From Natronorubrum thiooxidans (GTDB lineage: Archaea > Halobacteriota > Halobacteria > Halobacteriales > Natrialbaceae), in contig NZ_FTNR01000021.1 in assembly GCF_900156475.1 (NCBI RefSeq), forward strand, positions 1-34,518: a stretch of 34,518 nt of DNA, written 5' to 3'. The notes beneath the pieces were generated by a model, which saw only the letters and a program-made list of their open reading frames with translations, was not told the origin of the DNA and searched no databases. This document shows, one piece after another, positions 10,325 through 30,395 of this stretch; the stretch's first letter is position 1, and every line of letters begins with the position of its first letter. A program made the translations under genes and the position numbers.

Positions 10325-10398
10325 GGGCTCGTGGTCTAGTTGGTCATGACGCGGCCTTTACAAGGCCGAGGTCGGTGGTTCGAACCCGCCCGAGCCCA
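10325..10398 (+). tRNA. tRNA-Val (anticodon TAC)
   Basis: This is a complete 74-nt cloverleaf. Acceptor GGGCTCG pairs with CGAGCCC, with discriminator A. There is a D arm with the GTCTAGTTGG loop. Anticodon stem CGGCC/GGCCG encloses the loop TTTACAA, giving anticodon TAC. T stem GGTGG/CCGCC encloses TTCGAAC. CCA is not encoded, as usual in haloarchaea. A weak TATA-like AGGTTATTCG lies about 29 bp upstream. Confidence 0.96.
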
Positions 10399-10558
10399 CT
10401 TCCTGCTGCGAGCAATATCGCGAGCAGCAGGTATGTGGAACGAGCGGTGGATTCGAACCCTATCAGTCGCGCGCAGCGAAGCGAGCACGTCTGATTTCGG
10501 TTCGAACCCGTCCGAGCCCATTTCTACCACGAACAATTCGTGAGCGGCAGTCTATCGC
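10399..10558 (+). repeat. tRNA-Val trailer with duplicated tRNA 3' end
   Basis: Bases 10499-10520 repeat the last 22 bases of tRNA-Val (10377-10398) with a single C-to-T change, 122 bp downstream. Both copies are followed by related trailers that can form hairpins (CTGCTGC...GCAGCAG at about 10403-10430; CACGAA-CAA-TTCGTG at about 10528-10542). Between them lies an inverted T-arm copy GGATTCGAACC (10449-10459), and a TCAG...CTGA hairpin around GCGAAGCGAGC. The arrangement recurs behind tRNA-Phe and tRNA-His in this window. It could be the scar of a small integrated element or a processed trailer RNA. Confidence 0.6.
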
Positions 10559-11678: not shown

Positions 11679-11752
11679 GCCGCCTTAGCTCAGACTGGGA
11701 GAGCACTCGACTGAAGATCGAGCTGTCCCCGGTTCAAATCCGGGAGGCGGCA
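11679..11752 (+). tRNA. tRNA-Phe (anticodon GAA)
   Basis: This is a complete 74-nt cloverleaf. Acceptor GCCGCCT pairs with AGGCGGC, with discriminator A. The D arm contains AGCTCAGACTGGGAGAGC. Anticodon stem CTCGA/TCGAG encloses CTGAAGA, giving anticodon GAA. T stem CCCGG/CCGGG encloses TTCAAAT. There is no encoded CCA and no intron. A strong TATA box precedes it at normal distance. Confidence 0.97.
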
Positions 11753-11905
11753 TACCTTTTCCACGATGCAATTCGCCGAGCTGAAAGTATTCCCCGATTG
11801 GATTTGAACGAGAGAAGACACAGCGCGAGCGAAGCGAGCGACCGTCTTCGCGTGGTTCAAATCCGGGACGACATTTCTGCTCCGAGCAAACTCCCGAGCA
11901 GACAT
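11753..11905 (+). repeat. tRNA-Phe trailer with inverted and direct T-arm copies
   Basis: GGTTCAAATCCGGGA at 11854-11868 repeats tRNA-Phe bases 11731-11745 exactly, 123 bp downstream. GGATTTGAAC (11800-11809) is the perfect inverse complement of GTTCAAATCC (11855-11864). Inside that pair GAAGAC (11814-11819) matches GTCTTC (11844-11849). The result is a 65-base stem-loop whose arms are sense and antisense to the tRNA T arm, capped by a GCGAGCGAAGCGAGC loop. This is the same architecture as behind tRNA-Val. No protein gene is present. Confidence 0.65.
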
Positions 11906-14563: not shown

Positions 14564-14692
14564 CGGGCAACCGTACGGCTGGAACGATAATGGGTGTGTC
14601 TGCGACGTGCGCCCGCTCGAGGCTGGTCGACCTGATCGGGTCGAGGCGGGCTAGACCGAAGAGTAAACTAGTTTTGTGTGTATTGGTGGCAT

Positions 14693-15547
14693 ATGTCTGT
14701 CGACGAACTTGAGGCTATCGAGCATGGACTGGCACGTGTCAACGACGTCAAACTGCACTACGTGACCGCTGGCGAGGGGCCACCGCTGGTCTTGTTGCAT
14801 GGCTGGCCCCAGACGTGGTACGAGTGGCGTAACGTCATCCCTCACCTCGCGACCGACTACACTGTTATTGCGCCGGATCTGCGCGGAATGGGCGACTCGT
14901 CGGTTCCCGCGACGGGGTACGACAAAGACACCGTTGCGACCGACGTTCGCGAACTCGTCTCTCATCTCGGATTCGACGACGAGCCGGTCGCACTCGTCGG
15001 CCACGACTGGGGCATGCCAACGGCGTACGCCTACGCGGCTCAGTATCGCGACGACGTCGCAGCGCTTTGCGTTCTCGAGGCGGGCATTCCGGGTGTCAAC
15101 GAGGCGGATAAACGCCGGCTCTGGCACACACGCTTTCACAACGTTCCTGATCTGCCCGAACGACTCGTCGCCGGGCGCGAACGGCTGTATCTCTCGTGGT
15201 TCTACAAGAAAGGCGCGTACGATCCCAGTGCGATCGACGACGTGGCCCGCGACGAGTACGTCCGCTGTTACGCACAGACTGGCGGGTTACGCGGCGGCTT
15301 CGAGTACTATCGTGCCTACGACGACGACGTCGAGAACAACGCCGCCCACGCCGAGGAGCCACTCGAGATGCCGGTCCTCGCGCTCGGCGGTGCGGCTTCG
15401 TTTCGTGACCGGCCGATCAAAGATATGAACGCGGTCGCAACCGACGTCGACGGCGAGGTCGTCGACCGCGCCGGTCACTGGATTCCCGAGGAGCGACCGG
15501 CGTACTTCGTGGAGCGCTTGACTGGGTTTCTCGATGACGCGCTGTGA
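14693..15547 (+). CDS. Alpha/beta hydrolase (epoxide hydrolase-like)
   Basis: This 284-residue alpha/beta hydrolase has HGWPQTWYEW (36-45), the oxyanion motif HGxP characteristic of epoxide hydrolases and haloacetate/haloalkane dehalogenases. The nucleophile is Asp 105 in the elbow GHDWG (103-107), and His 262 in GHWIPEE is the catalytic base. The cap domain contains LYLSWFYKKGAYDPSAI and a Tyr-rich segment that may supply ring-opening tyrosines. An Asp nucleophile rules out a lipase or esterase. Epoxide hydrolase is the best guess, and a dehalogenase is the alternative. The ATG at 14693 follows a TATA-like GTATTGGTGG poorly; a GTG five codons earlier is less likely. Confidence 0.9.
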   Translation: MSVDELEAIEHGLARVNDVKLHYVTAGEGPPLVLLHGWPQTWYEWRNVIPHLATDYTVIAPDLRGMGDSSVPATGYDKDTVATDVRELVSHLGFDDEPVALVGHDWGMPTAYAYAAQYRDDVAALCVLEAGIPGVNEADKRRLWHTRFHNVPDLPERLVAGRERLYLSWFYKKGAYDPSAIDDVARDEYVRCYAQTGGLRGGFEYYRAYDDDVENNAAHAEEPLEMPVLALGGAASFRDRPIKDMNAVATDVDGEVVDRAGHWIPEERPAYFVERLTGFLDDAL

Positions 15548-15694
15548 GTTGTGGGCTCGAGACCGAACCCATGGTGATGGGAACCGGCTCGAGTGCGAGA
15601 ATCGGACCCGACTGCGAGATTCGCTACCGCTCGTCTCGCGTGGTTCGATCTCTCCCGGAACTATTCGCTCCTCACGTCCGTTCGTCGCAGAATA
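15548..15694 (-). repeat. tRNA-His trailer with duplicated T-arm
   Basis: Read on the minus strand, the bases after the tRNA-His-like gene repeat its T arm. GGGTCCGATTCTCGCAC (15609-15593) matches GGGTTCGATTCTCGCAC (15717-15701) with one change, 108 bp downstream. An inverted T-arm-like segment, GAGATCGAACCACG, lies between them together with a GAGCGGTAGCGAA motif. This is the third instance of the arrangement seen behind tRNA-Val and tRNA-Phe. There is no protein gene. Confidence 0.55.
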
Positions 15695-15767
15695 GTCCGG
15701 GTGCGAGAATCGAACCCGCGTCTCAGCCTCCACAAGGCCTCTGAAGGGCAGACTACCCAATTCTCGC
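15695..15767 (-). pseudogene. tRNA-His-like gene (GTG) with unpaired acceptor 5' strand
   Basis: Anticodon loop TTGTGGA, T arm GCGGG-TTCGATT-CTCGC, 3' acceptor strand ACCCGGA and discriminator C at position 73 are all as expected for tRNA-His. The 5' strand GCGAGAA does not pair with ACCCGGA, and the usual G(-1)TCCGGGT is missing. The D arm is shortened (GGGTAGTCTGCCC) and the anticodon stem AGGCC/GGCTG has a mismatch and a wobble. The 5' strand instead complements the T-arm strand TTCTCGC. I read this as a decayed or recombined copy; a functional but aberrant tRNA is possible if the genome has no other tRNA-His. Confidence 0.55.
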
Positions 15768-16139
15768 GTCGGATTCCTTCTCGTACCCGAACTTTCTCTG
15801 CGGAATCGGGGATACTGGCCGCGTCGAAGATCTTGAACCCTGTTTCCGCGTCGAGCGGTCGGAAGTCCCCACGCCGTCACAAAACAAGACATCTCGACGC
15901 GTCTCCATAAATCCCGGCGTCGGTTGCCTATTAGGGCGTACGAGAATTCTTGGCGGTCTAGTAGCTGAGTCGACTCAAAGGCGAAGATAGGAGAGCGGCT
16001 GGCCGAGAGGTAGTGGTCGATCAGTACAGACGAAGGCGTTACCGGAGCGGCTATCTACCTCTCTGATGGTTGCCAAACAAGCGTGCTGAACAGAGAGATT
16101 CTGTTCATCACTCTCTCCAGATGGGGTGAAACCGTTGCA
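15768..16139. other. Gene-free transition into accessory DNA
   Basis: I see no convincing gene in this 370-bp stretch. It contains a perfect 12-base palindrome TGAGTCGACTCA (15966-15977) and an eight-base inverted repeat AGAGGTAG/CTACCTCT (16006-16013 and 16055-16062). Sequence beyond it is visibly richer in A and T and uses fewer GC-ending codons than the genes to the left. The damaged tRNA-His is therefore a candidate left boundary of an inserted region. Confidence 0.4.
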
Positions 16140-16149
16140 TTTTTATCTA
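16140..16149 (+). promoter_or_regulatory. TATA box of antitoxin/GNAT operon
   Basis: TTTTTATCTA is centred about 25 bp upstream of ATG 16170, which predicts a leaderless transcript starting at the antitoxin's first codon. Confidence 0.55.
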
Positions 16150-16169
16150 ATACACACGTCGTCTCAGAC

Positions 16170-16316
16170 ATGGCATACCCGAAGCCGGTTCCCGCGTTCA
16201 CCCCTGATGCGTTCCGTGAGACGATGAACCGGGTCGAGGAGACGACAGTCCCTGACGAAGAGAAGGCCGCTGTTGACGAGCTTCGGGCGGAGATCCGAAG
16301 TGAATCCGAGGACTAG
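16170..16316 (+). CDS. Small antitoxin-like protein of a GNAT toxin pair
   Basis: This 48-residue protein starts MAYPKPVPAFTPDAFRE and ends in a charged helix (EEKAAVDELRAEIRSESED). I do not recognise a named family. Its size, its position 11 bp upstream of a TacT-like acetyltransferase gene on the same strand, and the shared promoter fit an antitoxin. It lacks an obvious ribbon-helix-helix segment, and the N-terminal Pro-rich part may instead be the toxin-binding arm. ATG 16170 was chosen because the TATA box fits it; an upstream in-frame ATG at 16083 would precede the promoter. Confidence 0.6.
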   Translation: MAYPKPVPAFTPDAFRETMNRVEETTVPDEEKAAVDELRAEIRSESED

Positions 16317-16327
16317 CGTCCTAATTG

Positions 16328-16894
16328 ATGTCCTCGGAATCACTGCTTTCTTCGAAGTATAAGTTTTCCTTTGATCCGAGCATTGTTGAATTGAATTCTG
16401 ACGCGGATACCTCTGACTTCGATTGCGGGAAATCGGATATAAACGAGTTTATCCAGACAAAAGAAGCGGTTAAGTTCCACGAATATCGATTAGGGCATAC
16501 TCGCTTAGTCTACGACAACGAGACACTTGCTGCGTTCTTCACACTCGCTCCGTACAGTTTTCAGAGCGATGCGTATGACGGGTCTGAAACCCAATACGCG
16601 GAGAAACTCCAAAACGAAGATGACCTGCCTCCTGCAGTTCCAAGCCGTCTTCTTGGACAAATTGGTGTTGATAGGCAGTATCAGGATGTCGGATTAGGAA
16701 AGTACCTGATGCGGTACATCATTGCGGACACATTGGAGCGTGACCAAAGCATCCCGTTTCGATTCATCGTACTTCACGCTCATGAAGATGTCGTAGATTT
16801 CTACAAAAAATTCGGGTTCGTAGAAAGCAACTCGGGGAAAGATAACAGTTGGGAGAATACGATCATGTTCCTCGATCTGGAAGAATACCGGTAA
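16328..16894 (+). CDS. GNAT N-acetyltransferase, TacT-like toxin candidate
   Basis: This 188-residue protein has the order of features seen in GNAT toxins such as TacT/AtaT that acetylate aminoacyl-tRNA. These are DFDCGKSDINEFIQTKEAVKF near the N-terminus (the 'FDCG...L..FL' opening), then TRLVYDNETLAAFFTLAPYS. The substrate strand PSRLLGQIGVDRQYQ leads into the acetyl-CoA loop QYQDVGLGKYL (Q-x-x-G-x-G). The closing FYKKFGFVES has the Tyr often used as general acid. ATG 16328 is preferred to a TTG one codon earlier. It probably forms an operon with the 48-residue gene upstream. A non-toxic acetyltransferase cannot be excluded. Confidence 0.78.
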   Translation: MSSESLLSSKYKFSFDPSIVELNSDADTSDFDCGKSDINEFIQTKEAVKFHEYRLGHTRLVYDNETLAAFFTLAPYSFQSDAYDGSETQYAEKLQNEDDLPPAVPSRLLGQIGVDRQYQDVGLGKYLMRYIIADTLERDQSIPFRFIVLHAHEDVVDFYKKFGFVESNSGKDNSWENTIMFLDLEEYR

Positions 16895-17063
16895 CAGTGC
16901 TCGCGTTTACTATGTCATCTGTATCTGACGCTAAGGGCAAACAAGTAGCGTGACCGACATACGTTATGTATCTCGCACGACTCGACGAATCTGACCAATC
17001 ACTGTCAGAACTTTCAGTATTCCATATTACACGTGTGTTGTAGCCATCATCGCCTAAATGTCC

Positions 17064-17165
17064 TCACCCGAGCAGCCATTCACTGTTGCGATATTTCGAG
17101 CCACATTTGGGACAGTCGGTATGAGGACATCTCCACGTTAGTTCACAAGAATATCCGGAAGGTCG
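17064..17165 (-). pseudogene. Zinc-ribbon-like reading frame without a start
   Basis: A 33-codon open frame on the minus strand ends WRCPHTDCPKCGSKYRNSEW-LLG, a plausible zinc-ribbon C-terminus with CxxxxC and CxxC spacing. No ATG, GTG or TTG lies in frame after the preceding stop. The frame overlaps the end of the 232-residue gene in another register. It may be the tail of a broken gene, or an alternative C-terminus of its neighbour reached by a frameshift. Nothing else is visible in 16,895-17,137. Confidence 0.2.
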
Positions 17166-17836
17166 TCATGTGACTGGTTCGGAAACACATATCGACTACT
17201 TCGGATCCCCTCGTTTCCGAAAATAGGAAATCGCTCCTCCTGAGCCGTATTTCCACCCTCTTTCAGTTCAACAACCACTCCGTCCCCATGGACTGTAACG
17301 ACGTTGTACACTTCGTTTTCCAGCGTATCGTGAATAGTGACTTCACGGAGTTGCTTCGTAACATCCCACAGGGTTCCGAGAGGCACGATGAACGTGGCAC
17401 TTCCATTTTCTTCTTTAAACTGATGGCGTTCGGTACAGAACGCATATCGGTCAAGCCGGTGGCGAACGCCATCGAAGTCACCGTTGAGTCCTTGAGTGAC
17501 TCCTCTGACAATCGCATCGTACATTCGGTTACTAACCGCTTCCCGAAGCTTTGTTGCGTCTTCTTCGGCGGCAAGGGCAACGACGGTCGATTCGTCAAGG
17601 ACACTCCTCTCAAGGTCACCCGGAACGATCTCGTCACATTCTGCTTCTCCAATATGCAAATCAAACTCCAAACGCAACTTCGAGCCAATCGGATGGGCAG
17701 AAATCTCTCTGAAAATATTGTCGGGCTTGATCCGCTCTGTGTCTCTATTTTCGCTCACCGACTCCACAAGTTCCGCGAGTTTCGAAGCCTCGATATTTGA
17801 CTTCTGCATCGTGCTCGAGGATCGTTTATCGTTCAT
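17138..17836 (-). CDS. Unrecognised 232-residue protein, partner of GHKL-like gene
   Basis: I do not recognise this protein. It is soluble, acidic and mixed alpha/beta, with no membrane helix, no cysteine motif and no nucleotide-binding loop. The N-terminal third is helical and Lys/Glu-rich (KLAELVESVSENRDTERIKPDN). The middle holds RLEFDLHIGEAECDEIVPGDLE and VALAAEEDATKLREAVSNRMYDAIVRG. The C-terminal half is beta-rich, with NVVTVHGDGVVVELKEGG and RYVFPNQSHDDLPD. It begins 17 bp after the stop of the GHKL-like gene on the same strand, so the two are almost certainly co-transcribed. Codon use is less GC-biased than in the core genes to the left. Confidence 0.7.
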   Translation of the reverse strand: MNDKRSSSTMQKSNIEASKLAELVESVSENRDTERIKPDNIFREISAHPIGSKLRLEFDLHIGEAECDEIVPGDLERSVLDESTVVALAAEEDATKLREAVSNRMYDAIVRGVTQGLNGDFDGVRHRLDRYAFCTERHQFKEENGSATFIVPLGTLWDVTKQLREVTIHDTLENEVYNVVTVHGDGVVVELKEGGNTAQEERFPIFGNEGIRSSRYVFPNQSHDDLPDILVN

Positions 17837-17853
17837 CTGTGACGATTCCGAAC

Positions 17854-18387
17854 TCAGAGATCACGCAGTCTCCGAACGCTAGAAGCGTTCTCGTCTGTGT
17901 TAACCGAAACGAGTGCTGTCCATTCGCTTTCGTCGAGTGCAGCGTATTCCCGGAGCTCCGCTTCAGAGATACGTTCGCAGATGTCGTCAGGAGCATCGAG
18001 GTTCACAACCTCGACACGCGTACCACCTTCCCAATATCCGGAATTGAATTCTGTGATCTGGTACTCAGGGGGATTCTCACTTGACGCTCGCCACACCTGC
18101 CCGTCTTTTTTGGTGACGACATGAACCTCCTCAGCACCGTAGAACGGCACATCCTCTGCGGACGCGTCGAAGAATCTCTCGAATTCCGTGGGTGCCGTAC
18201 CCTCTCCGTCATCTTCGACAATGATCACGGGCCCAGCCTCCTCAACCCGAATGTCGATGCCGATCTGATCGGGGTCACGCTCGTACGCAGCACCAACGAG
18301 GTCAAGAACGGCAAGCTTGGTTGGCATGGTCGAATCGCTCTCATCAGATTCAGACATCTCGGCGCCGTCGTTATCGTGTGTGTTCAT
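17854..18387 (-). CDS. GHKL/Hsp90-type ATPase-fold protein, degenerate N-box
   Basis: This 177-residue protein has residues 21-130 resembling the N-terminal half of the Hsp90/MutL/histidine-kinase ATP-binding fold. LAVLDLVGAAYERDPDQIGIDI aligns with the N-box helix (ELVxNAxDA). IIVEDDGEG is the G1 box DxGxG (Asp 59, Gly 61, Gly 63). After a lid-like region, EGGTRVEVVNL matches the closing 'GTxVxV' strand. The catalytic Glu is Asp 29, and the Mg-binding Asn is Ala 33, so ATP binding is possible but hydrolysis is doubtful. The N-terminal 20 residues are disordered and acidic. It is the first gene of a two-gene minus-strand operon. A stand-alone domain of this kind is unusual. Confidence 0.65.
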   Translation of the reverse strand: MNTHDNDGAEMSESDESDSTMPTKLAVLDLVGAAYERDPDQIGIDIRVEEAGPVIIVEDDGEGTAPTEFERFFDASAEDVPFYGAEEVHVVTKKDGQVWRASSENPPEYQITEFNSGYWEGGTRVEVVNLDAPDDICERISEAELREYAALDESEWTALVSVNTDENASSVRRLRDL

Positions 18388-18733
18388 ATGCGAAGTTGCA
18401 ACTATCTATTTGCGCTGTTCAATATTTGCACGCCCCTCAATCGCCGTGTGGCCGCTATACCTTCTCAGATCGCTCGATTTTTCTCCTCGACGCTGAACAC
18501 GTGATAAGAGAAGATCAATTTCAAACTTATAGATTTTTGTTTCTATATTACATTTCGAAATCGGTCGCCGCATTATCACATTTGGTCTTACTCTTCACAC
18601 ATCTTCTCGATAGCGTCCTAACCATCGACTGTAGTGACTGCTCAGTGAATCACTAAGTGTTAATTTCGAACTGCTTCTTTCCGAATAGGTATCTTAATAC
18701 TTACTCTTATCAAAGAACAGACGTATTTCTCTC
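18388..18733. other. AT-rich divergent promoter region
   Basis: This 346-bp gene-free stretch is clearly AT-rich for this genome. It lies between the divergent GHKL-like operon and the ParB-methyltransferase gene. Several TATA-like runs occur (TTATAGATTTTTG, CTATATTAC, CTTAATACTTAC), giving ample promoter material for both directions. I see no reading frame that looks coding. Confidence 0.4.
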
Positions 18734-18751
18734 GAGGAGAACACCATCCTT

Positions 18752-20158
18752 GTGGGATCGAACTCATCACCGCCTAAAGAAGAAGTGACAGAACTTCCAG
18801 ACTACCTATCTGTAGAATCTGGCTACCAGCCTCGAGTAGAAACTCGGCACCTCGAGACGCTCCAACCCCATCCCCTTAACGAACGTACGTACGGCGACCG
18901 GACTGATCTTAAGGAAACATTCCTTGACTCCATCGAGAACAATGGAATTCACACCCCACTTATTGTCACCCCTACTGACCTGATTATCTCGGGTCACCGG
19001 CGATGGGAGGCCGGCAAACAGCTTGACCTTGAGATAGTACCGGTCATCGTTCAAGAGTTCGCCGATGAACTCGACCAAAAGGAAGCTTTGATCGATCTCA
19101 ACCGCCAGCGAGATAAGACCTTCAGCCAGAAAATGCGAGAATCCGAGGTGCTACACGAGATTGAGGCTGCCCGGGCACGTCAGCGTCAAGGCCAGCGTAC
19201 AGACCTTCGGGAAAACGTACCCGATAGTGAGGTTTCTGAGTTCGCGCGTACTCGCGATGTCGTCGCCGAGAAAATCAACATTGGGTCTGGCAAGACCTAT
19301 GACTACGCCCGCACCGTCTGGGAGGCCGCTCAAGACGACGATCCAGTCGCAGTCAACCAAGTCAATAAACTAGACCGTGGCGATCAATCTATCAGCGGGG
19401 CCTACAAGATGGTACATCAACGCCACCCTTCTGAGTCCTCGGATACTGGAACCCCATCCGCGGCTACCCCCACCGACAAGGATGGCACATCATCCGACAA
19501 GGGAGAAATCCTCTCGCCGGACGAGTTAATTCTCTCAGCTCACATCGGCACGAACGAGGATCTATTCCCGGATATTCTTGACCTGCACGTCGAGAAAGGC
19601 GCAGTAATCGCAGACGTCACCTTCGGTAAAGGCGTTTTCTGGAAACAAGTTGACGTTGATGCGTACGAACTTCGCGCGACAGACATTCAGCCAGAACGTT
19701 CTCCGAGCGACAACTCCGGAGTCAACTATCACGACCTTCCGTACGACGACAGCGAACTCGACTCGGTCGTCTTCGATCCGCCCTACGCTAGTGGTCTATA
19801 CAATGAAGATCGGCGCGATGGTGACGAGGAAGCGTGGATTGTTGAACAGTACGGTACCGTCTTCGAAGGCAAACGTACTGGCCACGATGCGGTACTTCAC
19901 GAGTATGCCGGCGGAGCGAAGGAAGCGAAACGCGTGCTTCGGGAGGGAGGAACGTACATCGTGAAGACGATGGACGAAGTAGCTAGCGGCAAGCAACATC
20001 TCACCCATGTTGAAATCATTGAAATTTGTGAAGAGTTAGGGTTCACTACGACCGATTTGTTTGTCCTTGTTGGACAGACCACACCATCGTCACAAGGAAT
20101 TGTAACACAGCAGCACGCTCGAAAGAACCACTCGTACTTCCTCGTCTTCACCGCCTAA
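18752..20158 (+). CDS. ParB-like domain fused to DNA methyltransferase
   Basis: This 468-residue protein has three parts. Residues of about 30-105 are a ParB/sulfiredoxin-like domain, with GIHTPLIVTPTDLIISGHRRWEAGK containing the GHRRWEA motif (81-87). Residues of about 120-230 are a helical DNA-binding linker rich in Arg, ending in a disordered Ser/Thr/Asp stretch. Residues of about 245-468 are an amino-methyltransferase, with motif I DVTFGKGVFW (Asp 288) and motif IV DPPY (342-345), so N6-adenine or N4-cytosine methylation is likely. The start is GTG, supported by a GAGGAG Shine-Dalgarno 12 bases upstream. No restriction enzyme gene adjoins it. Similar fusions occur in phages and integrated elements. 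Confidence 0.88.
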   Translation: MGSNSSPPKEEVTELPDYLSVESGYQPRVETRHLETLQPHPLNERTYGDRTDLKETFLDSIENNGIHTPLIVTPTDLIISGHRRWEAGKQLDLEIVPVIVQEFADELDQKEALIDLNRQRDKTFSQKMRESEVLHEIEAARARQRQGQRTDLRENVPDSEVSEFARTRDVVAEKINIGSGKTYDYARTVWEAAQDDDPVAVNQVNKLDRGDQSISGAYKMVHQRHPSESSDTGTPSAATPTDKDGTSSDKGEILSPDELILSAHIGTNEDLFPDILDLHVEKGAVIADVTFGKGVFWKQVDVDAYELRATDIQPERSPSDNSGVNYHDLPYDDSELDSVVFDPPYASGLYNEDRRDGDEEAWIVEQYGTVFEGKRTGHDAVLHEYAGGAKEAKRVLREGGTYIVKTMDEVASGKQHLTHVEIIEICEELGFTTTDLFVLVGQTTPSSQGIVTQQHARKNHSYFLVFTA

Positions 20159-20192
20159 AAGAGCAGGTAACTCGTAACCGAGGCTTCCATAA

Positions 20193-20348
20193 CCGCCCCA
20201 TCATGTAGCGGCAGTAGGATCGACATCGTGGTATTCTGCCATTTCCGTTCTCGGCGAGATCATTGATGGATTCATCAATCTCTACGAGTTTGCGCCCAAA
20301 CAGTGGCCAGACGACTCCAGCTGGCAAGTGGTCAAGATCGACGACTGA
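20193..20348 (+). pseudogene. C-terminal remnant of an unrecognised gene
   Basis: An open frame of 51 codons has no start codon and ends LGEIIDGFINLYEFAPKQW-PDDSSWQVVKIDD before TGA at 20348. The composition is coding-like, and it follows the ParB-methyltransferase on the same strand. It looks like the tail of a truncated gene. Between 20,349 and 20,627 I see no further gene. Confidence 0.3.
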
Positions 20349-20627
20349 CCACCATTTTCTCCCTGTTTTTCATCGGAACTCGAGGGGGTGGTCACTCACG
20401 TTCAATGTGCAAGACCTTGCGGGAACGTGTGGAGCTAATCGCCAGATAGCAGAACTCGTGAAACGTACCCCGGCAATACGGGGCATACGAAACGAAATGG
20501 TCTGCAGCCCGCCACGCCGGCATTCAAGTTGAGAGCAACCGGAGGAATCAGGTGGGTGGTAGGGAGGTCACTCGCAGAAGGGATGGGACGATGACGGCAC
20601 GGGACAGGAGGCCCGTACGCTCTACTC

Positions 20628-21008
20628 TTAGCAGTCACCGAACCTGTTGTCGCCGTAACCTCGCCAATCCTCGATCACCTCGCGGAGCGCCCGCCGGGCA
20701 CGCGTCTGGAACGCCACCGGATCCGCCTTACCGGACGGATCCACGTCCGGCGGGTAGTCCTCCTCCACGGTCAACTCGTGCATCGCGTCCGCACGCCTCT
20801 GGATCAGCCTGTCCATCCAGTCCTCGTGGTTGGCGGCCCACGCCAACGCCGCCGTCACGTCCGCCACGTCCAGCCCGCGCTCGTCCGCGTACTCCTCGAC
20901 GGATTGTGTCGAGCCACCCAGCTGTAGAACCACGGTCAGCACGGGGAGTCTCCGGCCAGCAATGCGTGGCTCCCCATCCATGGGTATCTCGACATGCGCG
21001 CTAACCAT
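20628..21008 (-). CDS. DUF433 (VapB45-like antitoxin family) protein
   Basis: This 126-residue protein opens with the DUF433 pattern EIPMDGEPRIAGRRLPVLTVV (the family's 'GKPxIRGTRIPV') followed by the helix-turn-helix VEEYADERGLDVADVTAALAWAANHEDW. DUF433 proteins are often antitoxins partnered with PIN or DUF5615 nucleases, but no such toxin is adjacent. The C-terminal 50 residues (DYPPDVDPSGKADPVAFQTRARRAL) are outside the usual domain. Its ATG overlaps the stop of the preceding gene by eight bases (ATGGTTAG), so translation is coupled. This start was preferred over an upstream ATG at 21017 for that reason. Confidence 0.8.
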   Translation of the reverse strand: MVSAHVEIPMDGEPRIAGRRLPVLTVVLQLGGSTQSVEEYADERGLDVADVTAALAWAANHEDWMDRLIQRRADAMHELTVEEDYPPDVDPSGKADPVAFQTRARRALREVIEDWRGYGDNRFGDC

Positions 21009-21321
21009 CGAGCACACCCTCGATCATCCCGCGCATATGCTGGTTCTGACGCCAGTAGTACGCGACGCGACGCCGTTCCCGCCGCTCACTCGCGTCCATC
21101 TCCGAGATAATGCCCTCCTCCAGTTCACGCGGGCCGTCGACATCGTACTCGTCGCACCATTCGCGTTCCTCCTCGTCCATCCGCGCGAGCTCCGCTCTGA
21201 GCTCCTTATCGGGCTGGTCGGCCAGTTCCTCGCGCTTCTCCTCGCGTAGTTTCTCTTCGTCATAGTCGGGAAGGGATAGTGGCTCCGTCTCTCCGTCGAC
21301 ATCCTCGATGTCCTCGAGCAT
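21001..21321 (-). CDS. Acidic helical protein coupled to DUF433 gene
   Basis: I do not recognise this 106-residue protein. It starts MLEDIEDVDGETEPLSLPDYDEE and is very rich in Glu, Asp and Arg, with long predicted helices (EKLREEKREELADQPDKELR; DASERRERRRVAYYWRQNQ). It ends MRGMIEGVLDG. There is no membrane segment and no catalytic motif. It is the first gene of an overlapping pair with the DUF433 gene. By position it could be the toxin or an accessory factor, but its charge pattern resembles neither PIN nor RelE. The inner ATG 21321 is used because upstream sequence in the same frame is Arg/Pro-rich noise. Confidence 0.6.
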   Translation of the reverse strand: MLEDIEDVDGETEPLSLPDYDEEKLREEKREELADQPDKELRAELARMDEEEREWCDEYDVDGPRELEEGIISEMDASERRERRRVAYYWRQNQHMRGMIEGVLDG

Positions 21322-21623
21322 ACCTGCTACTACGCTCTGACGACACTTCGTTCCTATCAATAAAGTTATGGATAGCGGAGGGTAGCAACGGGAGCGTGGC
21401 CGCCCGCCGAACGCGGCGGACGGTCGATGACTCCACCTGAACCACCGCCGAAGCGGGCTTATCGGAGTGGGCGGCGAACCCCCATTAGGTGGTTCGCTGG
21501 CGTTCCTCCTGTGGCCCGTCCGGCACACGCGTTTCTCTCGTGAAACTCCAAAAACGCTGCCCCGAGGGCATTAACGCCGACTACACGCAGACATTTATCC
21601 GACAGGACAGGTGACGAGCAGGT
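21322..21623. other. Gene-free divergent interval
   Basis: These 302 bp lie between the DUF433 operon and a small plus-strand gene. A TATA-like ACATTTATCCG at about 21,590-21,600 suits the plus-strand gene, and CTTTATTG at about 21,356-21,363 suits the minus-strand operon. No further gene is visible. Confidence 0.35.
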
Positions 21624-21797
21624 ATGGACGAACTCAACGAGATCAAGTCGAAACTCGCCATGGCCAGTTCAGGACTTCACAAAACCCTCGAAAACGCAGA
21701 AGACATCGAAGAAGTCGACGATGAAGCCCTCGACAACATCGAGACCGCCCGCGACGCCGCCCGCCGCGCACTCGAACTCATCGACGGTGATGAATAG
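21624..21797 (+). CDS. Small acidic helical protein (57 residues)
   Basis: This short frame from ATG 21624 to TAG 21797 starts MDELNEIKSKLAMASSGLH and ends RRALELIDGDE. It is a single amphipathic helix pattern with Ala/Leu heptads and GC-ending codons typical of halophile genes. It is convergent with the serine recombinase, with nine bases between the stops, and has a TATA-like box about 30 bp upstream. It could be a recombinase accessory or regulatory factor; similar tiny proteins accompany haloarchaeal resolvases. The function is unknown. Confidence 0.6.
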   Translation: MDELNEIKSKLAMASSGLHKTLENAEDIEEVDDEALDNIETARDAARRALELIDGDE

Positions 21798-21806
21798 GCC
21801 GCCGGG

Positions 21807-22568
21807 TCAGTCGTCAGCGCGGTCGATCTCGTCAAGGGCTGCATCCACGCGCTCGTCCTCGGCTTCCTCCTCAAGATACCACCGCCGCCGTTCGTCGTCC
21901 TTGTGAATGTTCATGAGTGTCTGCCGCGTGCAGTTTGGAATCTCTCGGGCGGCCTCACGATAGGACGCTCCATCCTCGATGGCCTCGAGTGCCCGGACGA
22001 CGTCGAGGTAGCTAGTCTCACCCTCTTCGTAATCGGGAGAGAGGTTGGGGTGGAGGTAGCCCTCATCACTACGAGCAAAGCCGGTCGGCGTCTGGCCAAG
22101 CCACTTCCCTTCTCGCCGGGCGCGACGAAGGCCGGACTTGGTGCGGCGGATGATCTGCCTGCGTTCCTCAGTGTAGACCATCCCGACGACATCGGCGACG
22201 AACCGATTCGTGCCGTCGGGCTTGATCTTGTCCACCTTCCCGTTGGTGATGTGGACGGTGACGCCGTTGTCCTCGCACGCGTCGAAGAACTCCTGAATGA
22301 TGGAGCCGCGCCGGCCGATGCGGCTGATCTCCCAGACCACGACGTGATCGAGTTCGCCGTTCTTGATGCGGTCGAGGAGTTCGAGGTAGTCTTCGCGGTC
22401 GCGCGTGCTCCCGCTGACATCAAGGTCAACGTAATTGGTGATCTCAGTGGGATCGATGGCGGTGTTCTCCTCAAGCCACCTGTCGAGGTCATGCATCTGG
22501 TGCGACTTCTCCTGCGTGTCGGTGCTGGCGCGAATGTACTTCGCGTAATCCTTGGTATCGTCAATCAT
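21807..22568 (-). CDS. Serine recombinase (resolvase/invertase family)
   Basis: This 253-residue site-specific recombinase has an N-terminal resolvase domain with the catalytic motif YIRASTDTQEKS (Ser 15). Further landmarks are VVWEISRIGRRGSIIQEFFDACEDNGV with the conserved Arg pair, and MVYTEERRQIIRRTKSGLRRARREGKWLGQTPTGFA leading out along the long E-helix. The C-terminal part carries a helix-turn-helix (DGASYREAAREIPNCTRQTLMNIHK) and an acidic tail. The length is between small resolvases (about 190) and large integrases (about 500). It presumably drives movement or resolution of the local element. The start is the ATG at 22568, and a 14-base palindrome lies about 75 bp upstream. Confidence 0.92.
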   Translation of the reverse strand: MIDDTKDYAKYIRASTDTQEKSHQMHDLDRWLEENTAIDPTEITNYVDLDVSGSTRDREDYLELLDRIKNGELDHVVVWEISRIGRRGSIIQEFFDACEDNGVTVHITNGKVDKIKPDGTNRFVADVVGMVYTEERRQIIRRTKSGLRRARREGKWLGQTPTGFARSDEGYLHPNLSPDYEEGETSYLDVVRALEAIEDGASYREAAREIPNCTRQTLMNIHKDDERRRWYLEEEAEDERVDAALDEIDRADD

Positions 22569-22643
22569 ACTTTGTGAGTGGTTAGGCGGGCCAGAGGGGT
22601 TGCCAGTTTACCGCAGAGGCTCCACTTAAAGAACCGCTCTCGC

Positions 22644-22657
22644 TTACAGGCCTGTAA
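22644..22657. promoter_or_regulatory. 14-base palindrome upstream of recombinase
   Basis: TTACAGGCCTGTAA is a perfect palindrome 76-89 bp upstream of the recombinase start and about 210 bp upstream of the histone-fold operon. A dyad of this size fits a dimer-binding operator or a resolution half-site pair. The 298-bp gap around it (22,569-22,866) has no gene. Confidence 0.45.
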
Positions 22658-22866
22658 ACGAACATCCGTCCGTGCAACCACTCTATCCGGATCCAAGCTA
22701 TCACCTCGGATAAACGCCGGCCCGGTGCAACCCCCAACCGCGACGAACGCGTGTCCGCGAACTCCGTTTTGAACCTCGGTCGCTAATCTGGAACGAGACC
22801 GGTCAGGAAGACGAACACTCTCCAACTGTAGAAAGGACTATTTGACCCCAATGACAGGTAGGAGTC

Positions 22867-23250
22867 ATGGCTGTTGAGGGAGAGGACTCCGAACAAGCAG
22901 AAACAGAAGAAAACGATACCGAAGACATCGCACCCCCGGTCAAACCAACCTCACTGAAACGATTCGTCAAACAGCACTCCGATCTGAATGCAGGCGGTGA
23001 TGCAGTCGACGAACTGCAACACCATCTCGAATTCGTCGCGGAGAGAATCTGGCTTGAAGCCAGCAAACACGCCGAGGACGACGGTCGCAAGACAGTGAAA
23101 GAACGCGACGTGCAACACGCTATTGACCAGTTCACGGAGCCTCACGATCTGATCAAGAAGACCACGGAGCAACTGGACTGGATGAAACGTAATCTCGATA
23201 GACAGGTTGAACAGTCCATCGTCTACGCCGAAGACAGATATGACGACTGA
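22867..23250 (+). CDS. Single histone-fold protein with acidic N-tail
   Basis: This is a 127-residue protein. Residues 1-25 are an acidic, disordered tail. Residues of about 27-90 form a histone fold: helix 1 TSLKRFVKQHS, long helix 2 DAVDELQHHLEFVAERIWLEASKHAEDDG, then GRKTVKERDVQHAIDQF. The last matches the loop-2/helix-3 signature of archaeal histones (GRKTIKxxDIxxA in HMfB). Residues 91-127 add a C-terminal helical extension (LIKKTTEQLDWMKRNLDRQVEQ) absent from ordinary archaeal histones. Known haloarchaeal histones are two-fold fusions, so this is not the housekeeping one. The stop overlaps the next gene by 11 bases, so translation is coupled. GGAG lies four bases before the ATG. Confidence 0.82.
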   Translation: MAVEGEDSEQAETEENDTEDIAPPVKPTSLKRFVKQHSDLNAGGDAVDELQHHLEFVAERIWLEASKHAEDDGRKTVKERDVQHAIDQFTEPHDLIKKTTEQLDWMKRNLDRQVEQSIVYAEDRYDD

Positions 23251-24730
23251 CCAATTCCTCTTCAGGGACGGATACTCCATTCCAGAGAAAATCCGCCGAA
23301 TTCCAACCGGGAGAATCACGGCGGAAACTCCTGAGATTGACTCTCGGCTCCAAGACCTCTCCCTGTCAGAGAACGAGGTCAGTCGGATGGGGAAGAACGA
23401 CTTCTTCGACGAAGCCGAGGAACAACTCTCTACCTCGGCATACAGAAGCTTCGTCTCCAAACTCTTCGACAAGTACGGCGAGGAGGGTGACAAGTTCAAC
23501 ATGCAGCTCTTCGTCGCCGAGGAATCCCTCTCTCGCGAACATCTCGCACGCCGCGTCAATCAATACAACGAGGAACGGATTGACCGCGACTTCGACTCAC
23601 TCGTTGAACCCATCGTCCTCACCAATCACGAAGAGAACTCCAACTCCATAGACCTACAGTTCCGAACAACGGCCCACCTTGAGGACATCAACCCGGACGA
23701 CAAAATACCAATTCAGATCATCGACTCTGAGACCGGTAACACCGTGGATCGATACGGTGCAGACTACCACATCAAGGCCCCCGCCCGCTACCGAGTTGAG
23801 ACACGGGTCTACACAGAAACCGGGCTCACCGCGGTGTCGAACTACTCCAAGATCAAGGACGGTCTGAAGACAGACATAGCTAAGACCGTCACCGAGATGG
23901 CCCGAAGTGGGGTGCAGACCGGCGTCGGAAGCACGCACCGGTTGGAAATGAACGAGACGGAGCTCCTACTCCTCCTGCAGGAGATGGAGGGTGACATCTC
24001 AGGACTCGGTTACACTCTTGAAATCGCCGGAGTGGACACGGCCGACTTCACCGGACAGCGGGACGAAGATATGGTTGACACCGAGGTTATCCGTGCTGCC
24101 GACGAGGCTGGCCAGATCAGAAAGATCAAATACTACGTCGATCATCCCGGCGCAGACCCAGATGACGAGCGCGACGTGATGCTCCGAATCTTCGACGACG
24201 GCCACCTCACCACGTCCAAACCGGTGCCCTCCGATCTCCTTGACGTCATCGTCCTCCAGATAAACACCATTCGGGGGTACGATGGATTCCTAACCCCACT
24301 GATCGAACTCATCTACTCCTACGTCGGCGCGAAGTTCCGCGGCAAGTCCTCGATGATGCGGAACTCCCACATCTCAAAGACCAACCTTGCATTCAACAAT
24401 CTCATCGAGGAGTACTTCGAGAAGAACCAGACTCCGACAGAAGAGCTTCGCCTGTACAAGTCGATGATCGCTAACATCGGGATAAAGCTCTGCGACGAAG
24501 GCATTCCAAGAACCGCCGACATGGACGAGGTTTCCGAGGTGGACGACTTCTACGATCTTCAAGGCAAAATCGAGGAGTTCTTCCAAGACTACTCGCAACG
24601 GTCACTTGGAAAGACGAGCATCGATTACGATGAGCTGTCCAACCACCTAAACCACCTACTCCAACAAGACTGGGAGAGTCCAGTCGAAATCATCGAGTAT
24701 GCGATAGACCTGTATGATCTTAGCCGATGA
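23240..24730 (+). CDS. Unrecognised 496-residue protein of histone-fold operon
   Basis: I do not recognise this protein. It is soluble and has no membrane helix, Walker motif or cysteine cluster. Residues of about 1-110 are helical and charged (LSLSENEVSRMGKNDFFDEA). Residues of about 115-320 are beta-rich, with SIDLQFRTTAHLEDINPDDK, ARYRVETRVYTETG and HRLEMNETELLLLLQEME. Residues of about 330-496 are again helical, including LTPLIELIYSYVGAKFRGK and a C-terminal run of helices ending in VEIIEYAIDLYDLSR. The start is ATG inside the histone-fold gene's last codons (overlap ATGACGACTGA). Its own end overlaps the third gene by 17 bases. The coupling implies a stoichiometric complex of the three products. 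Confidence 0.72.
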   Translation: MTTDQFLFRDGYSIPEKIRRIPTGRITAETPEIDSRLQDLSLSENEVSRMGKNDFFDEAEEQLSTSAYRSFVSKLFDKYGEEGDKFNMQLFVAEESLSREHLARRVNQYNEERIDRDFDSLVEPIVLTNHEENSNSIDLQFRTTAHLEDINPDDKIPIQIIDSETGNTVDRYGADYHIKAPARYRVETRVYTETGLTAVSNYSKIKDGLKTDIAKTVTEMARSGVQTGVGSTHRLEMNETELLLLLQEMEGDISGLGYTLEIAGVDTADFTGQRDEDMVDTEVIRAADEAGQIRKIKYYVDHPGADPDDERDVMLRIFDDGHLTTSKPVPSDLLDVIVLQINTIRGYDGFLTPLIELIYSYVGAKFRGKSSMMRNSHISKTNLAFNNLIEEYFEKNQTPTEELRLYKSMIANIGIKLCDEGIPRTADMDEVSEVDDFYDLQGKIEEFFQDYSQRSLGKTSIDYDELSNHLNHLLQQDWESPVEIIEYAIDLYDLSR

Positions 24731-25907
24731 AGCCGATGTGCTAGAGGAAGCCTTCTTTCGGGCCGACGTGAGCGACGTCACTAGTCTCGAATTCCGGGAG
24801 CAAGACCTGATGGAATACGCCGACTTCCTCCACATAGAACGGGACATCATCCCCGACATCCGCCCGTACTTCTCCATCTCTGAAGATCAGCGGTGCGAGA
24901 AACACGGCATCGCGACTTCCTCGTGCGGCTGCGGCGAGTCAAGGCAAGTTCTAGCTTCGGTCTACCGACTTGACCCCGATTCCCTCATTGAGGACTGGGT
25001 TGACGCGGTGCGCAACAGATCCATCTTCGACTCCGTCGAACTGGAGCAGATCGACTCCACGAGATACATCCTGAATGCGTGGCTGGATCGAATCCAGATC
25101 ACCTTCCATTGCTTCTTCAACAAGGATGAAATGGAGAGACACGATTTCGAGCCACAGGCGATGGAGTTCGGCGTCTCGTTCTTCGGCGATCAACTGGTGG
25201 TTGAACGGGAACACCGCTACTCGTGGCGTGAGTTCCTCAATGACGATTTCGAGGACAAAATCACGACGGACGTCAAACACCTGAAAGAGGCCATCGGATC
25301 CGATTTTTACGAGTACAACCCACTCGAGGACTTCCGTGACCGAGTACGGCAGAGTCTACGCGACTATTTCGAGGACTCGGGATACGAGGTGCGGCGTGAG
25401 GTGAGAGAAATATGTCCGGTGGAAACTACGCAGTACGACATCGACACGGGGAAGACCGACTTCGTGGCCCACCGCGACGGCTCGAAGTTCATCGTCTGTC
25501 ACTGCGAGAAGACGCCGAGCTGGCACGTCCACCACTTCTCGAACGGTCGCATCAAGTCCGCTGAGCAGACTCCGATTATCGAGGATATGACGGAGAAGAT
25601 TGAGTCCAAGATCAACACGTATCAGGACATCAGACTGAACAAACAGACCGCCTCGAGGTTTGTAACCGTTCTCGCTACGTTCTTCTCCATCGGTTTTGTT
25701 GTCCTCCTATTCGAGCGCCTCGGTCTGATCGCGTCCGTCCTGCAGGAACAGTTCCAAGTCGGCGGTAATCTGCAATTGATTGCGTTCCTCTTGCTCATCT
25801 TCAACGCCATCGCGGCTATCGCACTCGCCGCAGTTGTCACTCGCCCGTACGTCCGCGATTTCCGTTTCAGTTGGAAGATCGAACCTTTCGAGGCGGAACA
25901 GCGGTGA
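24714..25907 (+). CDS. Two-helix membrane protein of histone-fold operon
   Basis: This 397-residue protein matches no family I recognise. Residues 1-310 are soluble: an early cysteine cluster CEKHGIATSSCGCGE (about 61-75) that could bind metal, an aromatic-rich middle, and near 215-270 a strand pattern (GYEVRREV, then TDFVAHRDGSKFIVCHCEK). The last is faintly like a restriction-endonuclease fold but without a proper (D/E)xK. Two membrane helices follow near the C-terminus (about 316-334 and 355-377), leaving both ends on the same side and a short basic, aromatic tail. Translation starts within the preceding gene. The protein probably anchors the histone-fold complex to the cytoplasmic membrane; that is inference. 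Confidence 0.72.
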   Translation: MILADEADVLEEAFFRADVSDVTSLEFREQDLMEYADFLHIERDIIPDIRPYFSISEDQRCEKHGIATSSCGCGESRQVLASVYRLDPDSLIEDWVDAVRNRSIFDSVELEQIDSTRYILNAWLDRIQITFHCFFNKDEMERHDFEPQAMEFGVSFFGDQLVVEREHRYSWREFLNDDFEDKITTDVKHLKEAIGSDFYEYNPLEDFRDRVRQSLRDYFEDSGYEVRREVREICPVETTQYDIDTGKTDFVAHRDGSKFIVCHCEKTPSWHVHHFSNGRIKSAEQTPIIEDMTEKIESKINTYQDIRLNKQTASRFVTVLATFFSIGFVVLLFERLGLIASVLQEQFQVGGNLQLIAFLLLIFNAIAAIALAAVVTRPYVRDFRFSWKIEPFEAEQR

Positions 25908-25973
25908 AGGACGGAGACTGAACGTGATCACCCGGCGCCAACCTACAAGTCGAGCAGCCATCTACGTCTACAC

Positions 25974-26072
25974 GTGACCGACGACGAAGAGGAAGTCATC
26001 GAGGAACGCGCGCACCTGCTTGACAACGAGGAGAACCTCGAACAGATCGACGAACTGATCGACGATCTCTGA
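25974..26072 (+). CDS. Possible 32-residue acidic peptide gene
   Basis: GTG at 25974 opens a frame ending at TGA 26072 that encodes a strongly acidic helical peptide (MTDDEEEVIEERAHLLD, ending IDELIDDL). The codon use is typical of halophile genes. It follows the three-gene operon by 66 bp on the same strand. Nothing similar is known to me, and the coding status rests only on composition and position. Confidence 0.35.
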   Translation: MTDDEEEVIEERAHLLDNEENLEQIDELIDDL

Positions 26073-26203
26073 CTTCGGCAACGTCCGTCGCCGGGATCAC
26101 GGACACTCCACATGCGCCCTACTCAATGTCCCGGTCGCCGCTATACACTCAAGACCCGGCGCGCGACGCGATCGCCGGCAGAGCCAAGCCGATCACACTA
26201 CCA

Positions 26204-26848
26204 CTACGCGTCCACCAGTCCGTGTCTCATCGCCCGCCACGCGAACCACAACATCCCGAAAACTAGACCAAAAAAGTGAGAACCCACCGACACACCGTCC
26301 GGGCTAGATTCGAGGCCAGCAAAACGTTGGACGGTCGCCCACCCGTTCACGGTCAAGAACACGGTCGCCAACAACATTAGCACCGCGACGGCCACCTCCT
26401 GCCAGTCGAACTCGAAGTCGCTGAGATCCTCCAACTGTCCGCTGAAACCGACGAGAAGAGCGGGGATCGCGTAACTGGTCAGGGCCTTCGTCAGCCCGCT
26501 CGCTCCCTGAGACCAACCCCCGAGACCCCACAGAGGTGGAACATGGAGGGCGAGGTAGGGGATCAACACCGCGAAGGCAAGGAAAGGAATCGAATCCACC
26601 CGACGCTCCGCGTAGATGCCGAGCGGGATGAAGAACGCCATGTTGTTCCAGAAGTGTGACCACCCGGAGTGCATCCACGGAGAGAGGAAGAAGTACTTCG
26701 CCGTAGTGTCGGGGACGGGATCTAGAAGGTAGAGCCCAACCATCCAGACCGTCAGGAGAGCGGTCGCCCACGGCACGACATCTCGGTTCACTATCGGTGA
26801 GAGTACCGCAGAGTGACAAATATCCCCGGATCTCTCCACGAGGAGCAC
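26204..26848 (-). CDS. Rhomboid-family intramembrane protease
   Basis: This 214-residue polytopic membrane protein has rhomboid hallmarks. HSGWSHFWNNM (His 60, His 65, Asn 69) fits the HxxxxHxxxNM motif of helix 2. GASG (115-118) supplies the catalytic Ser 117, and His 191 in VGSHFFGLVFG supplies the catalytic His. Six hydrophobic helices are recognisable. The Ser-His dyad cleaves transmembrane substrates within the bilayer. There are no flanking genes on the same operon: its start faces a plus-strand HTH remnant. It could process the membrane protein of the neighbouring histone-fold operon, but only adjacency suggests that. The first 20 residues may be over-called. Confidence 0.85.
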   Translation of the reverse strand: MLLVERSGDICHSAVLSPIVNRDVVPWATALLTVWMVGLYLLDPVPDTTAKYFFLSPWMHSGWSHFWNNMAFFIPLGIYAERRVDSIPFLAFAVLIPYLALHVPPLWGLGGWSQGASGLTKALTSYAIPALLVGFSGQLEDLSDFEFDWQEVAVAVLMLLATVFLTVNGWATVQRFAGLESSPDGVSVGSHFFGLVFGMLWFAWRAMRHGLVDA

Positions 26849-26883
26849 TTACCGCCGCAGAAGACGGATCCCACACCGTGTAA

Positions 26884-27075
26884 CTCAACACGGTAGACTC
26901 GCCCCAATCGAAACTCGTCTTCCTCTATCTAGACGCGAACGGCCCCTGCTCACTGGAACAGCTCGCCGACGAACTGGACGCCAGCCTACTCACAACGCAG
27001 GGCATCATTAGTAACCACCGCGACCATTACAGGTTCCACTGGGATCAAGGCTACGCACACGGCGAGAGGTGTTGA
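26884..27075 (+). pseudogene. Winged-HTH fragment without a start codon
   Basis: An open frame of 63 codons ends at TGA 27075. It reads SPQSKLVFLYLDANGPCSLE, then QLADELDASLLTTQGIISNH, a clear winged helix-turn-helix. No ATG, GTG or TTG follows the upstream stop (26881-26883). Either the 5' end was lost, or an unusual start is used. It is divergent from the rhomboid gene. Between 27,076 and 27,222 nothing else is seen. Confidence 0.4.
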
Positions 27076-27222
27076 AGCACGTCGAAATAGGGAGGCCGCA
27101 CGTGCGGGAGAATTTTCCACGAGGTCGTTGGTTCGATTTGATTGCGGATGAACGACACCCGTCTTCTCAACCATTTCGTTCACCAGCGACCGGGAAGTTC
27201 TCCTCTAACGGTCGAAGGCTGC

Positions 27223-27621
27223 CTACGAGGTGACGTTGAGGTGGCTCGAGTACCAGCCTGCACCCTCTTGATCGAGTGCTCCGTGAAAGATCTTGTTCAG
27301 CCGGATGTCCACGTCGTCATCGGGGATAACCGGCTCATCCCAGAACTCGACGTCGTCGACGACGAATTGAACGCGCGGGTTCTGGTTCAGGAGATAGTTG
27401 ACGCGTTCAGAGAGAAGACGGTGAAGATGGTCGCAGATTTCGTCGGCGTCATCGGCGCCTCGGAGATAGTCGTCGAGACCGTAGACGGTCACGTCGAAGG
27501 GGATGTCTCCCATGAAGTTGACCCGACGGAGAAACTCGACTATGCTCATCTCGGCGTCGAAGGTGTCTCCCTCGCCGACGACATCGCGCGAGACGACGTG
27601 GTATCCAATATCGAAGTTCAT
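27223..27621 (-). CDS. Unrecognised 132-residue protein downstream of BREX-like operon
   Basis: I do not recognise this small acidic protein, which starts MNFDIGYHVVSRDVVGEGD. It has alternating strand/helix segments (IPFDVTVYGLDDYLRGADD, ICDHLHRLLSERVNYLLNQ, RVQFVVDDVEFWDEP) and a C-terminal SSHLNVTS. No metal, nucleotide or membrane motif is visible. It follows the methyltransferase gene on the same strand by about 110 bp, but has its own TATA box at leaderless distance, so it is probably transcribed separately. Its place at the end of a defence-type operon suggests an accessory or regulatory role. Confidence 0.65.
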   Translation of the reverse strand: MNFDIGYHVVSRDVVGEGDTFDAEMSIVEFLRRVNFMGDIPFDVTVYGLDDYLRGADDADEICDHLHRLLSERVNYLLNQNPRVQFVVDDVEFWDEPVIPDDDVDIRLNKIFHGALDQEGAGWYSSHLNVTS

Positions 27622-27640
27622 CTTATTGCTGTCAACTGAG

Positions 27641-27650: not shown

Positions 27651-27688
27651 ACTTAAATCTCGGTTCTATGACCGCGGCGGGGTGTTGT

Positions 27689-30392: not shown

Positions 30393-30395
30393 AGA

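What the first reader, a model, noticed from the sequence alone, without database searches (positions are those of the whole stretch)
15593..15767. tRNA-His-like gene with wrong acceptor 5' strand and a duplicated T arm
The 3' three-quarters is a good tRNA-His (GTG anticodon, C73). The 5' strand GCGAGAA instead complements the tRNA's own T-arm/TTCTCGC region, so the acceptor cannot form. A T-arm copy follows 108 bp downstream, as with the other two tRNAs. It may be the scar of element integration at tRNA-His, and it marks where accessory DNA begins.
Basis: partly seen in the sequence, partly recalled or inferred. Interest (0 to 1): 0.5.

Follow-up and report, generated by a model that had tools for sequence, protein, structure and literature searches.

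The report
Integration scar beside tRNA-tail repeat
The odd histidine-tRNA gene is the leftover end made when a mobile DNA element inserted into the real gene, which is ordinary, but the extra tRNA-tail copy beside it belongs to a family of small folded repeats that sits behind tRNA genes across the salt-loving archaea and whose role is unknown.

Summary
The tRNA-His-like sequence is real (minus strand) but is not a gene: ARAGORN and Rfam do not call it. The genome has an intact tRNA-His on contig C37. The window copy shares an exact 44-nt block with it (15695-15738), and a tyrosine integrase gene follows the intact tRNA. In relatives both chromosomal flanks meet at one intact tRNA-His. So the window copy is attR, the far attachment site of an integrative element, as known at tRNA-His in Haloquadratum (PMC3119063, passages).

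The "duplicated T arm" is older and different: in relatives without the element it already follows the intact tRNA-His. It belongs to a family of roughly 100-bp units behind tRNA genes: tRNA tail, hairpin A, inverted T-loop, hairpin B, direct copy of the tRNA's own tail. The inverted/direct T-loop signature occurs in 281 of 293 genomes of the order and 7 of 163 elsewhere in the phylum. Similar hairpin modules recur behind different tRNAs, while tail copies match the local tRNA. No Rfam family covered the units tested, and none of nine literature searches surfaced a description. The mechanism is unresolved.

The parts
15695..15738 (-). attR core: 44 nt identical to the 3' part of the intact tRNA-His (anticodon arm to discriminator C73)
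   Evidence: intact copy at C37:17328-17401
15739..15767 (-). element-side, diverged tRNA-His-like 5' part with GCGAGAA in place of the acceptor 5' strand
   Evidence: sequence; compared by eye with the intact gene
15655..15694 (-). hairpin A of the tail unit that belonged to tRNA-His before the insertion
   Evidence: same place and type behind intact tRNA-His in G013, G011 and G005 (by eye)
15642..15652 (-). inverted T-loop of the tail unit
   Evidence: by eye
15608..15641 (-). hairpin B of the tail unit
   Evidence: by eye
   Evidence: count by hand
14678..15547 (+). alpha/beta hydrolase gene, chromosomal flank that adjoins intact tRNA-His in G003, G006, G008 and G016
15768..34518 (.). element side of attR (one arm of the integrated element, to the contig end)
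   Evidence: bases 15768-19500 tested: no hit in 24 tRNA-His or hydrolase loci of 18 relatives; the rest is inference
10325..10399 (+). tRNA-Val (TAC), intact
10400..10520 (+). tail unit of tRNA-Val: hairpin A, inverted T-loop, hairpin B, direct tail copy at 10500-10520 (20 of 21)
11679..11752 (+). tRNA-Phe (GAA), intact
11753..11875 (+). decayed tail unit of tRNA-Phe: inverted T-loop from 11800, tail copy at 11855-11875

Best explanation
The tRNA-His-like sequence is attR of an element integrated in tRNA-His. Recombination within the shared 3' block split the old locus: the promoter side with a restored, intact tRNA-His and the integrase gene are on contig C37; the old 3' end, its tail unit and the hydrolase flank are in the window. 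The T-arm copy 108 bp away belongs to a tRNA-tail unit that stood behind tRNA-His before the element came; such units are common behind tRNA genes in this order. These steps are shown by comparison; that one element joins the two contigs is inferred. How the units arise and what they do is open. My leading reading (about 0.4) is a DNA-level repeat whose hairpin modules A and B are exchanged between tRNA 3' flanks at T-loop sequences while tail copies are kept like the local tRNA; no enzyme is identified.
For: No tRNA call here; intact tRNA-His on C37; 44-nt identity; tyrosine recombinase gene on the same strand behind the intact tRNA (PF00589 E 2.9e-14). Empty site: 11 of 18 relatives hit both chromosomal flanks on one tRNA-His locus (three of them over only 137-250 nt of the C28 flank); both element-side stretches hit none of 24 loci. 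The tail unit follows the intact tRNA-His in 15 of 23 relatives. Units follow tRNAs widely.
Against: C28 and C37 are not joined in the assembly and share no end overlap. In G001 and G004 the aldo/keto reductase side, not the hydrolase, adjoins tRNA-His, and the hydrolase lies 46-51 kb off, so this flank is rearranged in some relatives. The integrase scores far below NCBIfam cut-offs. For module exchange: nearest B modules are enriched for the same tRNA (27 of 65 against 7.3% of random pairs), which fits inheritance, and orientation is nearly fixed (48 to 1).
Confidence: 0.92

Rival explanations
1. This is the sole or a second functional tRNA-His, repaired by 5'-end editing or by another rearrangement.
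For: GTG anticodon and C73 are present.
Against: An intact tRNA-His exists; ARAGORN and Rfam do not accept this copy; the promoter side of the old locus is on the other contig.
Confidence: 0.01
2. The tail units act as RNA: a transcribed pre-tRNA trailer whose hairpins and inverted T-loop serve termination, processing or small-RNA formation; the direct copy pairs with the inverted T-loop and keeps it off the tRNA's own T arm.
For: Stems of A and B keep Watson-Crick pairing through double changes (9 of 10 and 7 of 8 pairs, structure derived from the same alignments). One-sided orientation, 48 to 1. Inverted T-loop against direct copy has more G-U than A-C (69 to 24), though 43 of these are T-G, many at one position. 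A paper reports that another screen found Haloferax volcanii tRNA fragments mainly from 3' trailers of pre-tRNAs (PMC3544259, passage).
Against: In the stems G-U is not favoured over A-C: A 10 to 6 and B 5 to 15; A 30 to 42 and B 11 to 16 on alignments (a subset of 18 B modules gives 3 to 0). Units are present behind under half of tRNAs in each of three genomes. No transcript data were available.
Confidence: 0.3
3. The tail units are footprints of tRNA-targeting integrases: very small integrated elements or remnants that leave a copy of the T-loop-to-3'-end block each time, in tandem.
For: The direct copy starts at the T-loop and ends at the tRNA end, a usual archaeal att block (PMC8371274, section 18). 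Tandem units exist, such as two at G010 tRNA-His.
Against: The same A-inverted-B plan and similar modules behind many tRNAs are not expected of independent remnants. No exact hairpin A match in viral contigs.
Confidence: 0.2
4. The units are a by-product of palindrome-driven template switching at tRNA 3' ends, homogenised by gene conversion, without function.
For: A 50-bp block is perfectly inverted between two tRNA-Met loci with near-identical flanks, as template switching at inverted repeats can do (recalled). Decayed units are common (by eye).
Against: Similar modules in different families and genera, including an identical 37-nt module behind tRNA-His in one genus and tRNA-Val in another.
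Confidence: 0.15

Closest known systems
Genomic island 3 of Haloquadratum walsbyi HBSQ001 at tRNA-His (PMC3119063, passages seen)
   Same: Insertion begins at an intact tRNA-His with an integrase gene next to it and ends with a 43-nt repeat of the 3' end of that tRNA
   Different: Host, cargo and size differ; here the two ends are on separate contigs; the passages seen do not mention a tail unit
Partial tRNA genes left by integration in archaea (PMC9897764, passages seen)
   Same: A non-functional 3' tRNA fragment explained by an integrated element, with the intact gene elsewhere
   Different: Those are Thermococcaceae; the tail unit is an addition here
REP/BIME repeats of bacteria (recalled, no call)
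   Same: Short extragenic palindromes in alternating orientation with variable spacers
   Different: Here the alternating repeat is the local tRNA's own T-loop and the arrays sit behind tRNA genes; no REP transposase was looked for
PATEs, palindrome-associated elements of Haloquadratum (PMC3119063, passages seen)
   Same: Small haloarchaeal elements with palindromes near their ends
   Different: PATEs are linked there to IS605-type transposons; tail units carry a copy of the local tRNA tail

Membership tests
Integrative element at a tRNA gene with tyrosine integrase | intact tRNA at one end, 3' tRNA repeat at the other | tested here: met
   44-nt exact block
Integrative element at a tRNA gene with tyrosine integrase | integrase gene beside the tRNA | tested here: met
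   L036 (C37) 16047-17246 minus, PF00589
Integrative element at a tRNA gene with tyrosine integrase | empty site in relatives | tested here: met
Integrative element at a tRNA gene with tyrosine integrase | one contiguous element between the two ends | tested here: inconclusive
   two contigs without end overlap
Integrative element at a tRNA gene with tyrosine integrase | excision or transfer | not testable with these tools
   needs the strain
SNJ2-type integrase family | membership of the integrase | not tested
   nearest NCBIfam model is archaeal XerA, 53.7 bits against a cut-off of 220; the SNJ2 paper is not held
Functional, permuted or split tRNA gene | no intact gene for the same tRNA elsewhere | tested here: not met
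   intact tRNA-His on C37
Known Rfam RNA family (for the tail unit) | match at gathering score over the unit | tested here: not met
   window and six loci: tRNA, 5S rRNA and an S15 leader only
REP/BIME-type repeat | alternating palindromic repeats outside genes | tested here: met
   inverted T-loop of 8 of 10 or better in 74 of 91 units against 4 of 91 shuffled
REP/BIME-type repeat | cognate REP-type Y1 transposase | not tested
   no search made

The most novel reading that the evidence does not exclude
Halobacteriales carry an order-wide, still active system of short cassettes anchored behind tRNA genes. Hairpin modules come from a common pool and are exchanged between tRNA loci and species at T-loop sequences, while the flanking tail copies are kept nearly identical to the local tRNA.
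Probability: 0.33. Interest if true: 0.8.

Novelty: new variant of a known kind. Interest (0 to 1): 0.57.

Why it matters
The scar is routine, but it explains a false tRNA-His and marks one end of an island with defence-like genes. The tail units matter more: a structured repeat of a whole archaeal order, tied to tRNA genes and changing with them. They can mislead att-site mapping, because a tail copy near a tRNA does not prove an integrated element. Whether they work as DNA sites or RNA trailers can be tested in Haloferax volcanii if it carries them.

Tried and rejected
Sole or edited tRNA-His: rejected, an intact copy exists. T-arm copy made by this integration: rejected, it stands behind intact tRNA-His in relatives. 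Hairpin B as a freely flipping switch: disfavoured; 48 forward, 1 reversed, 31 of 80 without the motif. RNA-strand signature: mixed. Stems show none; the inverted T-loop against the direct copy does show a G-U excess, 69 to 24. Joining C28 and C37 by end overlap: none found. Hairpin A in viral contigs: 0 exact matches.

Limits of counts; the 14 places with up to 2 mismatches were checked for tRNAs; the 22 with 3 mismatches were not. One search scored 80 of the 86 stretches (61 matches in haloarchaea, 25 in bacteria); 10 of the 61 have no tRNA end within 400 bp upstream. Of the 6 of 30 places without a tRNA upstream, L269 lies inside a tRNA, L275 and L296 show the same or nearly the same motif and were not tested, and L276, L279 and L291 stay unexplained. 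One search printed no tRNA-His for 3 loci (L066, L073, L074), which are outside the 23. The sets are biased, since many loci were fetched by hairpin A or tRNA-His; one search dropped units longer than 140 nt or with an inverted T-loop below 7 of 10 (91 to 80). In one search pairs identical in both A and B were dropped as repeat fetches, and 13 of 78 had no neighbour within 20%. One search is the unbiased set. In one search one genome (G417) had one control hit.

Literature: nine answered searches, seen as listings. Passages were seen of PMC3119063, PMC8371274 (and section 18), PMC9897764, PMC3623002 and PMC3544259. None of what I saw describes the tail units; the library lacks most subscription journals.

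Full report
What is there. The window is a whole contig (C28, 34,518 bp) of a 4.21-Mb genome in 62 contigs. On the minus strand 15767-15695 resembles tRNA-His, but ARAGORN and Rfam at gathering score do not report it. An intact tRNA-His is at C37:17328-17401. The two share exactly 44 nt, plus one base on the 3' side. On the 5' side the window copy has a diverged, D-arm-like stretch and the 'wrong' strand GCGAGAA.

attR. Behind the intact tRNA on C37, on the same strand, lies a tyrosine recombinase gene. Four stretches were compared with 24 loci of 18 related genomes. Eleven of the 18 hit both chromosomal flanks on one tRNA-His locus, three of them over only 137-250 nt of the C28 flank. In G003, G006, G008 and G016 the window's hydrolase adjoins the tRNA. 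In G001 and G004 the aldo/keto reductase side adjoins it and the hydrolase is 46-51 kb away, so the flank is rearranged there. The two element-side stretches hit none of the 24 loci. So the window copy is the far attachment site. If C28 15768-34518 and C37 1-17327 are the two arms, the element is at least 36 kb; the contigs show no end overlap. An island at tRNA-His with a 43-nt repeat and an adjacent integrase is described in Haloquadratum (PMC3119063, passages). This part is a new member of a known kind.

The T-arm copy is older. In relatives an intact tRNA-His is followed by a hairpin, an inverted T-loop, a second hairpin and a direct copy of its own tail. Of 23 relatives whose tRNA-His I could print, 15 have a copy of at least 17 of 21. 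In the window genome the unit sits behind attR, as expected if the element inserted between the tRNA and its unit; behind the intact tRNA on C37 the best match is 12 of 25, no better than shuffled sequence.

A family of tail units. Over the tRNAs that Rfam finds in three genomes, a tail copy of at least 17 of 21 lies 55-160 nt downstream in 10 of 45 (own), 15 of 43 (G013) and 18 of 44 (G161, another family). Within 300 nt the numbers are 11, 15 and 19 downstream, 1, 0 and 0 upstream, and 0 in shuffled sequence or on the opposite strand. A hairpin A 18-mer with up to 2 mismatches occurs 14 times in the own genome: 13 lie within 280 bp behind listed tRNAs, and the 14th stands behind a tRNA-like sequence with an apparent intron (by eye). 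In public genomes 51 of 61 exact haloarchaeal matches have a tRNA end within 400 bp upstream, 39 within 40 bp, against 0 of 25 bacterial ones. The signature GATTYGAA-N22..52-GTTCRAATC occurs in 281 of 293 genomes of the order and in 7 of 163 genomes elsewhere in the phylum. Of 30 signature places from 30 genomes, 24 lie 37-94 bp behind a tRNA on the same strand.

Anatomy and behaviour. The direct copy runs from the T-loop to the tRNA end. The inverted copy pairs well over about 9 nt and fades by about 13. An inverted T-loop of at least 8 of 10 is found in 74 of 91 units, against 4 of 91 shuffled. Stems of A and B keep Watson-Crick pairing above shuffles (0.754 against 0.557; 0.788 against 0.599), with double changes in 9 of 10 and 7 of 8 pairs (the structures come from the same alignments). 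G-U is not favoured over A-C in the stems, but it is between inverted and direct T-loop (69 to 24). Hairpin B modules: the nearest neighbour within 20% edit distance lies behind a different tRNA for 38 and the same tRNA for 27 of 78; random pairs share a tRNA in 7.3%. So modules are shared across tRNAs, yet also inherited with a tRNA. One 37-nt module is identical behind tRNA-His in L058 and tRNA-Val in L193. At tRNA-His, A and B types combine differently between species, and where the T-loop differs (G010, G022, G029) inverted or direct copies differ with it (by eye). A 50-bp block is perfectly inverted between two tRNA-Met loci, flanks 47 of 49 and 30 of 31 identical; overall orientation is 48 to 1.

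Mechanism. I favour a DNA-level repeat whose modules are exchanged at T-loop sequences, with tail copies kept like the local tRNA; the enzyme is unknown. RNA trailer function is a close rival, integrase footprints and template-switch by-products follow. The nearly fixed orientation speaks for a strand-bound role; the stem mismatches do not show an RNA strand; the T-loop pairs do. These are weak tests.

Known or not. No Rfam family covered the units in the window or six loci. Nine answered searches and the passages read gave no description. That is not proof of novelty, since most subscription papers are not held.

Noticed in passing
window 27729-33801 (-): Defence-like genes on the element side: a DUF1156/HmaB-like methylase, a weak PglZ match and a DUF499/HmaC-like ATPase; far below the NCBIfam cut-offs.
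   Followed up: partly
window 21807-22568 (-): Serine recombinase (Resolvase domain, PF00239) on the element side.
   Followed up: no
window 1-89 and 150-271 (+): Two 5S rRNA matches in tandem at the contig start, the first cut off.
   Followed up: no
window 7118-7208 (+): ARAGORN's tRNA-Ala (91 bases) lies inside a long ORF and is not supported by Rfam; probably a false call.
   Followed up: no
window 12882-12969: Large inverted repeat (38-nt arms, 82%); similar CATACGG...CTGCTGT-like letters follow tRNA loci in L054 and L228 (by eye), perhaps another haloarchaeal repeat.
   Followed up: no
L216 3248-3265, L228 3753-3770: Hairpin A with a tRNA-Gly tail about 2.5 kb behind tRNA-Gly, as if small elements had pushed the unit away.
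   Followed up: no
C42:60940-61014 and C50:9792-9866 (L030, L031): Two tRNA-Met loci whose tail units differ by a perfect 50-bp inversion.
   Followed up: yes
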